From Candidatus Falkowbacteria bacterium CG1_02_37_21 (lineage in GTDB: Bacteria > Patescibacteriota > Patescibacteriia > Patescibacteriales > UBA12465), in assembly GCA_001871165.1 (NCBI GenBank), contig MNUT01000018.1, forward strand, positions 1 to 33,824: DNA of 33,824 nucleotides, written 5' to 3'. Each line of letters opens with the position of its first letter. The first letter of the stretch is position 1. The notes under the pieces were generated by a model that was given only the letters and a program-made list of their open reading frames with translations, had not been told where the DNA came from and made no database searches. The position numbers and the translations under genes were made by a program. This document shows, piece by piece, positions 2,069 to 7,851 of the stretch.

Positions 2069-2422
2069 TTATTTGGTTAAACTGGCAACGGCTTCTTTAA
2101 TAAATTCATCTAAGCCAACTTTCACTTTTTCCGCATAATCGGGAATATATTTATCTAATAGTTCCTGTAATTTTTCCTGATCAGGAATTAAACTATTTTC
2201 TAAAAGTTGCGAATATTCCAAACGACCCTCCTCATTAAGATTTTCCATTATAATTAAACCTAAACGACGAGTAATTTGTAGGGCCAAATTCTCTCTAACA
2301 TAATTTTTATCCGCTTCCGGTAAATTAGATAAATAAGCTTGCTCAATTATTAAATCGGCGATCTCTTTTGATTGATCGGAATTATTTAAATCCGACGTCA
2401 TAGTGTTGGTTGTAACAGACAT
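2069..2422 (-). CDS. Small acidic helical hypothetical protein (117 aa), possibly DUF5663-like
   Basis: Complete ORF with a TGTTATAAT extended -10 upstream; pattern resembles small CPR proteins of unknown function; family assignment from memory and weak. Confidence 0.7.
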   Translation of the reverse strand: MSVTTNTMTSDLNNSDQSKEIADLIIEQAYLSNLPEADKNYVRENLALQITRRLGLIIMENLNEEGRLEYSQLLENSLIPDQEKLQELLDKYIPDYAEKVKVGLDEFIKEAVASLTK

Positions 2423-3664: not shown

Positions 3665-4495
3665 TTATTTAGTTAAAATTTCACAGCCCTTTTCAGTAAT
3701 AGCCAACGTGTGTTCAAAATGAGCACTTAAAGAATCATCTTCGGTTAAAATTGTATAGTCATTATCGGCCACCGTCACTCGCCAGTCGCCGGCATTAATC
3801 ATCGGCTCAATAGCAATTACCATTCCCGATTTTAAAACCAGATTATCGGGAGAATTATCACGAATTTCAAAATTAAAGACATCTGGTTTCTCATGGGGAA
3901 AGTATCCCACGCCATGACCGACCAAATCTCTGACAACACCATAGCCATTCTTCTCGGCTAAGCCCTGCACCGCTCGCGCAATATCATTCAAAGTATTACC
4001 CGGCTTGGCCGCCTTAATACCTAAAGCCAAACAACGCTCTGTTATTTTCAATAATTTTTTAGCCTCATCACTAACTTTGCCGACACCAACCGTTAAACAA
4101 GTATCAGTAAAAAAACCACCTCGCTGAGAATGGGGATTACGAGGAGCTTTAAATTTAGCCCGCAAATCCGAAGTAACTGGCCATTCCATGCCAATATCCA
4201 AATCTACAATATCACCGGATTTAATTATTCTATTAGGCAAAGCCGCCCCATGAACAACCTCATTATTTATAGAGACACAAAGTGTAGAGGGGAAGAAAAT
4301 ACCGCCACCCATAGGATAATTCTTAAAAGCAGAATAACCCCCTGTCTCTTTAATTAATTTATTCGCCAGAATCTCCAGGTCCGCCGTTCGAACACCAACT
4401 TTTGTTGCCTTAGCTATCTGACGCAAAATAGCAGCCAGACGACGACCGCCTTCTTTAAGAATTCTAATTTCTTCGGTTGTTTTTAAATAAATCAT
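3665..4495 (-). CDS. map: Type I methionine aminopeptidase
   Basis: SINNEVVHGAAL, GHGVGYFPHEKP and IAIEPMIN motifs; extra segment between the DLDIG and FTDT metal-ligand regions. Confidence 0.92.
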   Translation of the reverse strand: MIYLKTTEEIRILKEGGRRLAAILRQIAKATKVGVRTADLEILANKLIKETGGYSAFKNYPMGGGIFFPSTLCVSINNEVVHGAALPNRIIKSGDIVDLDIGMEWPVTSDLRAKFKAPRNPHSQRGGFFTDTCLTVGVGKVSDEAKKLLKITERCLALGIKAAKPGNTLNDIARAVQGLAEKNGYGVVRDLVGHGVGYFPHEKPDVFNFEIRDNSPDNLVLKSGMVIAIEPMINAGDWRVTVADNDYTILTEDDSLSAHFEHTLAITEKGCEILTK

Positions 4496-4497
4496 AA

Positions 4498-5430
4498 TTA
4501 AGTTAATTTAAGGTATTTCTTGCCTTGTTTAGCGCTATGAATAGATAAGTACAGAAAAAATCCAAGCAGGACCACCATCGCCAGAGGCGCTAACCAAAAA
4601 GGAAATTCTTGGCCAAAACTTTCCATAATCATAATTGACCCCAGAACACCGATAGCATACATGGCGCCATTTTTTAAATAAGCAAATTTGGCAATTAGAT
4701 CAATACCGCGGACTGTTAATTCTCGGACGACAACCGCTCCGAGACCGTTACCTAAAATAATTAAGGGTACGCTGACGGTAAAAGCAAAAGCGCCAATAAC
4801 CCCATCAATAGAAAAAGAAGCATCCAAAATTTCTAAATATAAAATTTTACTCCAAGCCGCCATCGCCGGATTCAGAAGTTGCTGCTCTTTTTCCTCCGCA
4901 TTTTTTTTAAAACCATCGGTAATAAAGAAAGCGCTAACACCGATAGTCGCCGCTAAGGCCAAGATAGGATTCTGTTGTAAAGAGAGATAAACGACCGTAG
5001 TAGTGATAATTGAAGCTAAGGCATAAAACCAAACCCCTTGACGATGAATAAATCCCTCAACCAAAAAAGCATATTTTTTTTCTTCCAAAAATAGCCAAGA
5101 TAAAAAAACAAAAAATAAATAAATTCCGCCACCTAACAATAAAAGCGGCTTAGAATGCTCTAAATAGGCGTTCATTTCTTGACTACCGGAAAAAGCGTAG
5201 CCAATTACTTGTCCAATACCTAAACTAGGATTAGCCATCCAGACAATTATAAAAGGTAGCAGACCGCGCACCACAAAAACCGCAAATAATAATCCCCAAA
5301 ATAAAAAAATCTTCCGGTATTTCTCCGGCATGGTTTTTAAAATATTGGCATTAACTACAGCGTTATCAACGCTACTAATAATTTCAAACAAAGCCAAACC
5401 AATAATCGTGATAATCAAATTCCCCGACAT
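4498..5430 (-). CDS. DUF475/TerC-family integral membrane protein
   Basis: Multi-TM protein with EIISSVDNAVVNANIL and LDASFSIDGVIGAFAFT motifs typical of the TerC/DUF475 superfamily. Confidence 0.8.
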   Translation of the reverse strand: MSGNLIITIIGLALFEIISSVDNAVVNANILKTMPEKYRKIFLFWGLLFAVFVVRGLLPFIIVWMANPSLGIGQVIGYAFSGSQEMNAYLEHSKPLLLLGGGIYLFFVFLSWLFLEEKKYAFLVEGFIHRQGVWFYALASIITTTVVYLSLQQNPILALAATIGVSAFFITDGFKKNAEEKEQQLLNPAMAAWSKILYLEILDASFSIDGVIGAFAFTVSVPLIILGNGLGAVVVRELTVRGIDLIAKFAYLKNGAMYAIGVLGSIMIMESFGQEFPFWLAPLAMVVLLGFFLYLSIHSAKQGKKYLKLT

Positions 5431-5448
5431 AACATTTTAATATAATAC

Positions 5449-5580
5449 CTAAGTCCGGCTATTACGAAAACCGGGGGGTGGGGTTACAGACTGTCTGCCT
5501 ATTGAATGGCTAGAATCGGGCCCTAAACCGCTACGACTCGGAGCACCGGTTTGATTATCAGCCCTAAGACCACTCCCCAT
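5449..5580 (-). CDS. Possible nested 43-aa ORF or frameshifted tail of the 202-aa upstream paralog
   Basis: MGSGLRADNQTGAPSRSGLGPDSSHSIGRQSVTPPPGFRNSRT, in the -1 frame relative to the 5523..6131 ORF; AGGAG six nt upstream of its ATG; composition matches the S/G/R/N-rich tail upstream. Confidence 0.4.
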   Translation of the reverse strand: MGSGLRADNQTGAPSRSGLGPDSSHSIGRQSVTPPPGFRNSRT

Positions 5581-6131
5581 AATACGCTCCTATTACTTTG
5601 TCCGCTACTTTCTGTTTTTCGCAGGCCGCTAAAAGCTTCTTTCTGCAAACCACGGGCCACCCCACCCGAACCTAAACACTCCATTTTCTGATAGTTTAAA
5701 TCAGCCTTTTTTTGAGCACCACGACTAACTAAATAATCGCCACCACCGCGTAAGCCCGAAGAATGACTATCCTCAAAACCCATAGTACGAGCCGATTGGG
5801 CGACAGTATTTACTAGCTTAGCATCAGTTTTACGCATTCCCTTAAAACCATCTAACATGCCATTAATATCACTCAAGTCACTCTTAGAAAAACCCAATTT
5901 CGATTTATCTTCAAACAAATGATATTTATCTCCTTGTATGGCGGCGCGCGACGGAGCAACACCGCTTCTTACTCTGTTATTATATTTTTTTGCCAAATTT
6001 AAAACTACAGATTGGCTATCTTTATCTAAACTTCTATAACGAGAACTAGAGCGCAACATTTTTGATAAATGCTGTGTTGTTTGCGAACCAGACAAACCTC
6101 TTAATTCTTTAGCAATATTTTTCAAATCCAT
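5523..6131 (-). CDS. Hypothetical protein, paralog of the adjacent 98-aa ORF (202 aa, possibly frameshifted near the C-terminus)
   Basis: Complete ORF; N-terminal ~98 aa aligns with the ORF at 6140..6436. Confidence 0.7.
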   Translation of the reverse strand: MDLKNIAKELRGLSGSQTTQHLSKMLRSSSRYRSLDKDSQSVVLNLAKKYNNRVRSGVAPSRAAIQGDKYHLFEDKSKLGFSKSDLSDINGMLDGFKGMRKTDAKLVNTVAQSARTMGFEDSHSSGLRGGGDYLVSRGAQKKADLNYQKMECLGSGGVARGLQKEAFSGLRKTESSGQSNRSVLWGVVLGLIIKPVLRVVAV

Positions 6132-6139
6132 ACAAAAAT

Positions 6140-6436
6140 TTATTCTTTAAAACTTTCCAAAAGTTTATTAATCTGCTCTAAATCTCTATAGGTTAAACCT
6201 AATTTAATTCTATTTTGATGTAAATAATATTTGTCTTCTCTAACGGTTAAACGTGAAGGCTTAATACCCTTTCTAATTTTTTCTTTATATTTTTTAATTA
6301 AATCCAAAATCAACTCCCGATTATGTCTATCAAGATTCTTGTAATTAGGGTTAGTGCGCATCATCTCCTCTAAGCGCTGTTCAATCCGATAATTATATTG
6401 ATTACTTAAATCTTCGGTAACATCTTTGAGATCCAT
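6140..6436 (-). CDS. Hypothetical protein (98 aa), first member of a tandem paralog pair
   Basis: Complete ORF with a promoter-like sequence upstream; shares MDLK...LD...L.L.KKY...R.G..PSR....KY.L....KLG...L..IN..L..FK with the 5523..6131 ORF. Confidence 0.75.
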   Translation of the reverse strand: MDLKDVTEDLSNQYNYRIEQRLEEMMRTNPNYKNLDRHNRELILDLIKKYKEKIRKGIKPSRLTVREDKYYLHQNRIKLGLTYRDLEQINKLLESFKE

Positions 6437-6497: not shown

Positions 6498-6506
6498 ATT
6501 ATAGCA
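6498..6506 (-). promoter_or_regulatory. Extended -10 promoter (TGCTATAAT) for the paralog pair
   Basis: Minus strand TGC-TATAAT downstream of the secY terminator-like hairpin and upstream of the ATG at 6436. Confidence 0.5.
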
Positions 6507-6510
6507 CAAA

Positions 6511-6537
6511 AAAAATCAGCCTTAAAGCCAATTTTAT
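6511..6537 (-). terminator. Intrinsic terminator-like hairpin after secY
   Basis: Minus strand AAAATTGGC-tttaa-GGCTGATTTTTTTT. Confidence 0.5.
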
Positions 6538-6579: not shown

Positions 6580-7851
6580 TTAAATTCCGTCGTATTCCCG
6601 CATTGTTAACTGAGACTCTATTTCCTTCACGGATTCAATAACTACCGCCACAACGATCAACAAGCTGGTACCACCAATAGCTAAAGACTGAATACCGGTG
6701 AAATAACGCATCACGAGAGGTAAAACAGCAACTACGCCCAAGAATAAAGCGCCAACCAAAATAATTTTATGAGCGGTAGATGATAAATAATCACTAGTGT
6801 TTACACCCGGTCTAATACCAGGAATAAAACCGCCCTGTTTCTGTAAATTTTCAGCAATCTGAGTCGGATGAAAAATAACTTCTGTATAAAAATATGTAAA
6901 AGCAAAAACCAAGATAAAATAAACAATACCGTAGAAAAGCTGATTATTAAACAAAGCAATAGTAGAAGAAGCGGCATTAGCAATCCAAGCAGTTTTAGCG
7001 TGAATTAAGAATTGGGCAATCATAGAAGGAAACAAAACCACAGAGATGGCAAAAATAATCGGAATAACACCAGCCATATTTACTCTAATCGGTAAATGAG
7101 TATTAGTACCGCCAAAAGACTGATTACCACGCACCTGACGAGCATACTGTACCGGAATATTACGCTGACCTTCATTAATGATAACAATGCTGACAACAGT
7201 CACTAAAGTAATCAGAGCAAAAACCAAGACGGTTAAGACCTGGGTAGAATCAAAAGTAACGATAAAACGCTGTAACATGGTCGGTAAACCAGCTACGATA
7301 CCGGCAAATATTAACAGTGAGATACCATTACCAACTTTCTTTTCAGTAATAAGTTCGCCTAACCACATTAAGAAAATAGAACCAGCGGTAATAACTAAAA
7401 TCATGATACCTAAATCCAAGGCACTAATATCGCCTAAAATACCGGCGGAACTTTTACGGAGTAAAGTAATCATACCGTAAGACTGTAAAAGACCGAGCGG
7501 AACAGTTAACCAACGTGTCCACATGTTTATTTTCTGTCGTCCCGACTCTTCCTTCTGCATTTCTTCCACGGATGGCACAATCATTCCTACTAACTGAAAA
7601 ATAATAGAGGAAGTAATATAAGGAGCCACACCCATCATGACAATAGAAAAATTCTCCATACCACCGCCGGAGAACAAATTCATTAAACCTAAAATTTGGT
7701 TGGAGGCAAATAAATTACGTAAAGCGGCGGCATTAACACCCGGTACCGGAATATGAGCCGCTAAGCGAAAAATTACTAACATCGCCAAAACAAAAAGAAT
7801 ATTATTTCTTAGTTCCGGTATTTTCCAAATTTGGCTTAATTTACTAAACAT
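6580..7851 (-). CDS. secY: Protein translocase subunit SecY
   Basis: Multi-TM protein; RLAAHIPVPGVN, GGMENFSIVMMGVAPYITSSIIFQL, NEGQRNIPVQYARQ and MREYDGI. Confidence 0.95.
   Translation of the reverse strand: MFSKLSQIWKIPELRNNILFVLAMLVIFRLAAHIPVPGVNAAALRNLFASNQILGLMNLFSGGGMENFSIVMMGVAPYITSSIIFQLVGMIVPSVEEMQKEESGRQKINMWTRWLTVPLGLLQSYGMITLLRKSSAGILGDISALDLGIMILVITAGSIFLMWLGELITEKKVGNGISLLIFAGIVAGLPTMLQRFIVTFDSTQVLTVLVFALITLVTVVSIVIINEGQRNIPVQYARQVRGNQSFGGTNTHLPIRVNMAGVIPIIFAISVVLFPSMIAQFLIHAKTAWIANAASSTIALFNNQLFYGIVYFILVFAFTYFYTEVIFHPTQIAENLQKQGGFIPGIRPGVNTSDYLSSTAHKIILVGALFLGVVAVLPLVMRYFTGIQSLAIGGTSLLIVVAVVIESVKEIESQLTMREYDGI

What the first reader, a model, noticed from the sequence alone, without database searches (positions are those of the whole stretch)
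5523..6436. Tandem paralogs of an unrecognised family downstream of secY
The ORFs at 6140..6436 and 5523..6131 share MDLK[DN]...L...M[ML]R[TS]..Y[KR][NS]LD[RK]......L.L.KKY....R.G[IV].PSR.....KY[YH]L....KLG....L..IN..L[ED].FK over their first ~98 residues, which indicates duplication. One copy gained a long Gly/Ser-rich tail. They occupy the region after secY where adk is common in the canonical spc operon, with a dedicated extended -10 promoter. A basic, helical KKY...R.G..PSR motif could suggest nucleic-acid binding, but this is speculative.
Basis: partly seen in the sequence, partly recalled or inferred. Interest (0 to 1): 0.6.

Follow-up and report, generated by a model that had tools for sequence, protein, structure and literature searches.

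The report
Unnamed small helical protein family, Falkowbacteria
The two neighbouring genes are real relatives and belong to a small helical protein family that no database recognises; it is confined to one class of ultra-small bacteria and often sits right behind the protein-export gene secY, but its job is unknown and probably that of a modest helper or adaptor.

Summary
ORF98 (6140-6436, -) and residues 1-98 of ORF202 (5523-6131, -) are homologous: 37% identity, z = 41 against shuffles. The window belongs to a Ca. Falkowbacteria-type Patescibacteria genome. ORF98 is the founder of an undescribed family: usually single copy, near-constant 98 aa, in 58 of 111 genomes of the order, under strong purifying selection (dN/dS 0.05-0.10), with no Pfam, NCBIfam, PHROG or PDB match. 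AlphaFold gives a four-helix domain (pLDDT 84), and Foldseek finds no match. Divergent members occur in other families of the class, repeatedly in the slot secY-FAM-adk-map. ORF98 therefore did not replace adk; adk left the locus, and G000 has adk elsewhere. The promoter is real and conserved (TGnTATAAT in 17 of 20 loci). In most congeners a second gene carries a diverged copy of the domain plus a disordered tail. ORF202 looks like that second gene with a fresh ORF98-type domain on an old tail, and it is frameshifted near 5590. Nucleic-acid binding is not a family-wide property, since net charge runs from -4 to +17. Best guess: a helical protein-interaction (adaptor) domain, possibly membrane-peripheral in part of the family. 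Function remains unproven.

The parts
6140..6436 (-). ORF98: stand-alone 98-aa member of the family
   Evidence: coding frame score; dN/dS of orthologs 0.05-0.10; AF2 model pLDDT 83.7
5523..6131 (-). ORF202 as given by the open frame: second family domain plus tail; C-terminal ~20 aa probably read in the wrong frame
5838..6131 (-). shared family domain (residues 1-98 of ORF202), closest to ORF98-type rather than gene-2-type domains
5610..5729 (-). conserved ~40-aa tail motif (A-x-LNYxxMxxLGxxxxARxLQKxxFxxLxK) shared with second genes of G004, G006, G009, G011
5449..5580 (-). frame-2 continuation of the tail (MGSGLRADNQTGAPSRSGLGPDSSHSIGRQSVTPPPGFRNSRT), the probable original C-terminus before a frameshift or assembly indel
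   Evidence: codon score per frame; sequence
6498..6506 (-). extended -10 promoter TGCTATAAT, conserved upstream of ORF98 in relatives
6508..6535 (-). weak terminator-like hairpin plus T run after secY; strong GC hairpins at the same place in several congeners
   Evidence: the stricter scan did not report one in G000
6580..7851 (-). secY, the gene upstream
4498..5430 (-). DUF475/TerC-type membrane protein between gene 2 and map; patchy in the genus
3665..4495 (-). map, the next conserved gene of the transcription unit (then ruvX, recO)

Best explanation
ORF98 and ORF202 are two members of one undescribed small-protein family (a domain of about 70-98 residues, predicted as a four-helix bundle) that is lineage-specific to one class of Patescibacteria. 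SHOWN by computation: homology, distribution, purifying selection, recurring position directly behind secY (before adk where adk is still there), own conserved promoter, and a second gene in most congeners made of a diverged copy of the domain plus a fast-evolving polar tail. INFERRED: the domain is a protein-protein interaction or oligomerisation module rather than an enzyme or a dedicated nucleic-acid binder. ORF98 would be the stand-alone module and gene 2/ORF202 the same module carrying a disordered tail with a short binding motif (LNYxxMxxLG...ARxLQKxxF), so that the tandem pair forms or regulates one complex. Part of the family in other families of the class begins MG[LF][LF]xx[IL]F, which looks like a short amphipathic membrane anchor, so the complex is plausibly membrane-peripheral. 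ORF202 is most likely the old gene 2 whose domain was replaced by a copy of ORF98 (duplication or gene conversion) and which has since suffered a frameshift in its tail (or an assembly error).
For: Homology of the two ORFs. Profile-profile links of ORF98 to the secY-adk-slot proteins (prob 94.8, E 5.5e-8), to the KTGSAF type (97.2, 3.5e-11) and to gene-2 domains (53, 1.4e-4), against column-shuffled controls of at most 4.4% and E >= 0.0094. Adding gene-2 domains to the alignment raised the AF2 model from pLDDT 67/pTM 0.47 to 84/0.70, as expected if they share a fold. Conserved positions are structural (hydrophobics, Gly57, Arg76, Asp85 at the helix-4 cap) with no catalytic-looking cluster. Purifying selection: ORF98 0.05-0.10, gene-2 domain 0.08-0.13, tail 0.21-0.26. 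Tail motif in five congeners. Domain recombined with tails on either side: C-terminal tail in the genus, N-terminal tail in f81 behind miaA. MG[LF][LF]xx[IL]F N-termini in 11 of 26 class-level members versus 1 of 679 background proteins.
Against: No experiment and no homolog of known function. Foldseek finds nothing significant in PDB or viral models (best E 0.77), so the adaptor role rests on the lack of alternatives. The N-terminal hydrophobic motif is absent from all 51 order-level members, ORF98 included, was chosen after inspection, and its hydrophobic moment is only moderate. Position near secY is not universal: other families of the order have it beside trpS/gdh/phosphomannomutase, which weakens any translocon link. 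The AU test does not formally reject grouping ORF202's domain with the gene-2 domains (p = 0.079).
Confidence: 0.4

Rival explanations
1. Nucleic-acid (rRNA, tRNA or nucleoid) binding protein: the basic helices contact RNA or DNA, tying ORF98 to its ribosomal-operon neighbourhood.
For: Order members have median pI 9.4 and mean net charge +4.7; gene-2 domains net +11 to +14, C-terminal 100 aa of f81 members +12 to +17.
Against: Charge is not conserved: order members range from -4 to +14 and secY-adk-slot members from -3 to +6. Conserved positions are mostly hydrophobic/structural. Structural matches are not significant. bS20 itself coexists with the family in nearly all genomes.
Confidence: 0.25
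2. ORF98 is a leader-type regulator of its own transcription unit (ORF98-gene2-terC-map-ruvX-recO).
For: First gene behind a conserved extended -10 promoter and, in several congeners, directly behind a terminator.
Against: The gene keeps its sequence when it sits beside trpS/gdh/pmm or lgt in other families, without map downstream. No DNA-binding family match.
Confidence: 0.1
3. ORF202 is a decaying pseudogene: a duplicate of ORF98 that ran into gene-2 remnants, of no function. (This concerns ORF202 only and is compatible with the best explanation for ORF98.)
For: Frame shift near 5590; long branch of the domain; gene 2 is lost or reduced to a tail in several congeners.
Against: The domain and the tail motif keep coding-like codon scores and the motif is well conserved; an assembly indel cannot be excluded.
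Confidence: 0.3
4. A toxin-antitoxin or other selfish pair inserted after secY.
For: Two adjacent small genes, patchy distribution.
Against: ORF98 is usually alone, is strongly constrained and vertically syntenic over a family; the two genes are paralogs of each other; no match to TA families in Pfam or NCBIfam.
Confidence: 0.03

Closest known systems
Ribosomal protein bS20 (PF01649)
   Different: No sequence match; bS20 is present alongside the family in 94 of 109 order genomes; bS20 is strongly basic
SHOCT-type C-terminal helical hairpins (SHOCT-like_DUF2089-C, PF22746)
   Same: Last two helices with a turn of the type ...(G/K)x(I/L)(S/T)xxD...K..
   Different: Best Pfam score E = 0.2 in one member, far below cut-off; the family domain has two further helices
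Ribosome recycling factor, helical domain
   Same: One RRF (G553) was hit by the broad profile A5 at E 8.9e-4, and the helix-GKIT-ED-helix turn looks alike
   Different: Covers part of one domain only; PDB RRF at E 0.44; probably a convergent helix hairpin
DUF7174 (PF23796), unknown function
   Same: Five family members give weak matches, best E 2.7e-5
   Different: Partial match (about 45 of 153 profile positions, member 1) scoring 14.6 bits against a cut-off of 27
Adenylate kinase slot of the spc operon (secY-adk-map)
   Same: The family gene occupies the position between secY and map
   Different: Not an adenylate kinase; where adk is retained the order is secY-FAM-adk-map; 98 aa, all-helical, no P-loop

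Membership tests
ORF98 family (defined here) | Match to the family profile over the whole 98 positions | tested here: met
   ORF98 2.6e-41, ORF202 residues 1-97 1.0e-26 with profile A1; ORF98 is a row of A1, ORF202 is not
ORF98 family (defined here) | Predicted four-helix domain | tested here: met
   AF2 pLDDT 83.7, pTM 0.70 for ORF98; ORF202's domain was not modelled on its own
Adenylate kinase (PF00406) | Match to the ADK profile | tested here: not met
   Pfam scan of both ORFs; adk of G000 is on C15
bS20 (PF01649) or its functional replacement | Sequence match, or complementary distribution with bS20 | tested here: not met
   No match of the ORFs; bS20 coexists with the family in most order genomes
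SHOCT-like hairpins | Pfam match above the curated cut-off | tested here: not met
Nucleic-acid-binding protein | Conserved basic character | tested here: not met
   net charge -4 to +17 across the family; tested on net charge only, not on a mapped surface
Nucleic-acid-binding protein | Binding in vitro | not testable with these tools
   needs protein
Peripheral membrane protein with N-terminal amphipathic anchor | Hydrophobic/amphipathic N-terminus MG[LF][LF]xx[IL]F | tested here: inconclusive
   11 of 26 class-level members, 0 of 51 order members, 1 of 679 background
Any known Pfam/NCBIfam/PHROG/PDB family | Match above curated cut-off or E < 1e-3 over most of the domain | tested here: not met

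The most novel reading that the evidence does not exclude
A class-specific accessory protein of the translocon or of the ribosome, encoded in the secY-adk slot of the spc operon and moved elsewhere in some families, with a tailed paralog that recruits clients; that is, an extra component of a core machine that model bacteria lack.
Probability: 0.12. Interest if true: 0.65.

Novelty: new variant of a known kind. Interest (0 to 1): 0.4.

Why it matters
A constrained, usually single-copy family in about half of an order, repeatedly placed directly behind secY in one of the most conserved operons of bacteria, is a good candidate for a lineage-specific helper of a core process. Its profile could annotate small proteins that current libraries miss. 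Lineage-specific small families of unknown function are common, however, so the case is useful rather than startling; that is why it is filed as a new variant of a known kind although the family itself is undescribed.

Tried and rejected
Replacement of adk: rejected. Replacement of bS20, suggested by weak structural hits and by bS20 missing from G000: rejected, bS20 is found in 94 of 109 order genomes and its absence from G000 fits an incomplete genome. Tail motif as a widespread module: only the five known genomes, no other protein in 60 relatives. Family outside the class: none found in the secY-adk slot of 32 genomes of other classes; the one phylum-level hit was RRF. Genome-contig scan with ORF98 alone found nothing; with a close alignment it found nine Falkowbacteria-type contigs. 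AF2 with close sequences only was poor. Literature searches for the locus gave nothing relevant. Homology between the genus tail motif and the f81 N-terminal tails (RDxLxYxxM look): only E 0.079 in a small set, not claimed.

Full report
What is there. On the minus strand the window reads rplO, secY (7851-6580), ORF98 (6436-6140), ORF202 (6131-5523), a DUF475/TerC-type membrane protein (5430-4498), map, ruvX, recO. The genome has 696,515 bases in 32 contigs. Congeners held under names are Ca. Falkowbacteria and other Parcubacteria-group records, so this is a Patescibacteria genome; in GTDB the class is probably ABY1, which is my recollection and not a tool result. ORF98 and the first 97 residues of ORF202 align without gaps at 37% identity, E 6e-28, z = 41 against shuffles.

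Family. A protein search found relatives in 37 of 60 related genomes. A profile of 27 members (A1) finds the family in 58 of 111 genomes of the order, one copy per genome except G000 (two), nearly all 97-100 aa (lengths). dN/dS between congeners is 0.05-0.10, so the gene is maintained. Pfam, NCBIfam, PHROGs and PDB sequences give no match above cut-off. Broader profiles reach other families of the class: 51 of 381 class genomes at E <= 0.01, including the order itself and some hits that will be chance; almost nothing outside the class. Profile-profile comparison ties ORF98 to the class-level groups with E 5.5e-8 and 3.5e-11 and to the gene-2 domains with E 1.4e-4; reversed and column-shuffled controls stay at E >= 0.0094 and probability at most 4.4%.

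Position. In the window's family the order is secY-ORF98-(gene 2)-(terC)-map-ruvX-recO. In other families of the order the gene is mostly beside trpS, a Glu/Leu/Phe/Val-type dehydrogenase and a phosphomannomutase, or near lgt (names of these neighbours were read by me from the sequences). In other families of the class it lies between secY and adk: directly so in G132, G205, G251, G120, G162, G288 and G214; in front of adk with the secY side off the stretch or not identified in G299, G312, G181, G209. The 32 genomes drawn from other classes show secY-adk-map or other arrangements without it. So the slot behind secY may be the old place, and adk was lost from the locus in the window's family; G000 has adk on contig C15. 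In f81 genomes the domain is C-terminal to a long polar tail and sits behind miaA.

Promoter. TGnTATAAT lies upstream of ORF98 in 17 of 20 secY-linked loci (2% in shuffles), often just behind a hairpin plus T run that would end the secY transcript; a simple rule finds such a hairpin in 9 of 20 (6% in shuffles), and it misses some hairpins visible by eye. In G000 the hairpin is weak, and the stricter scanner does not report one. Mono-nucleotide shuffles and related sequences make these numbers indicative only. ORF98 is thus probably the first gene of a map transcription unit.

Second gene. Eight congeners carry a second gene whose first ~100 residues are a diverged copy of the domain, followed by a polar tail (G001, G002, G003, G005, G008, G010, G011, G015; truncated by the contig end in G005 and G008); three have a tail-only gene (G004, G006, G009); others have none or an unrelated short ORF. 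The tail evolves fast (dN/dS 0.21-0.26, many gaps), but a 40-aa motif is shared by G000, G004, G006, G009 and G011 and occurs nowhere else in 60 genomes at a convincing score. ORF202 combines this tail with a domain that groups inside the congeners' ORF98 proteins (support 88/78) and not with the gene-2 domains; forcing it to the latter costs 16 log units, AU p = 0.079, not a formal rejection. The simplest history is duplication or conversion of the ORF98 domain onto an old gene 2. The codon score moves from frame 0 to frame 2 near 5590, and frame 2 runs on to 5449 with relative-like composition, so the hydrophobic end of ORF202 is probably the product of a frameshift, genomic or of assembly.

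Structure and mechanism. With eleven close sequences AlphaFold2 gave pLDDT 67; adding six gene-2 domains gave pLDDT 84, pTM 0.70, helices 15-28, 37-55, 62-74, 83-95. Foldseek finds no significant match in PDB or viral models. Invariant positions in A1 are Leu35, Gly57, Leu72, Arg76 and Asp85, which look structural. Net charge varies from -4 to +14 in the order and from -3 to +17 in the class, so nucleic-acid binding is not a shared property. Eleven of 26 class-level members start MG[LF][LF]xx[IL]F or a close variant, against 1 of 679 background proteins (pattern chosen after inspection), resembling short amphipathic membrane anchors such as that of E. coli EIIA-Glc (recalled, not tested); ORF98-type proteins lack it. 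My best guess is a helical interaction domain, used alone (ORF98) and with a tail bearing a short motif (gene 2). This is inference by elimination, confidence about 0.4.

Verdict. Real, ordinary in kind, new as a family. The interesting part is the recurrent place behind secY; the function is open.

Noticed in passing
window 4498-5430 (-): A DUF475/TerC-type membrane protein sits between gene 2 and map in G000, G004, G011-G013, G015, G018, G026, G034 but is absent at that place in other congeners: repeated gain or loss in a core operon.
   Followed up: partly
L103:4278-4967, L104:3941-4627, L184:3261-3962, L185:3311-4021, L189:3091-3738: f81 genomes carry the family domain at the C-terminus of a 215-236 aa protein with a long Ser/Thr-rich tail containing repeats of the type TTSI(G/S)R and a conserved (R/D)xLRYxxIR motif, often directly behind miaA.
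   Followed up: partly
L151:1486-2022: G016 has a further tailed gene-2-like protein (178 aa) next to a TRM11-like methyltransferase, away from secY; its domain lies between the two groups in the tree.
   Followed up: partly
window 2069-2422 (-): DUF5663 protein downstream of recO; unknown function.
   Followed up: no
upstream of ORF98 in L032-L051: The terminator hairpin of secY and the extended -10 of the next unit lie within a few bases of each other in many congeners, a compact terminator-promoter junction.
   Followed up: partly
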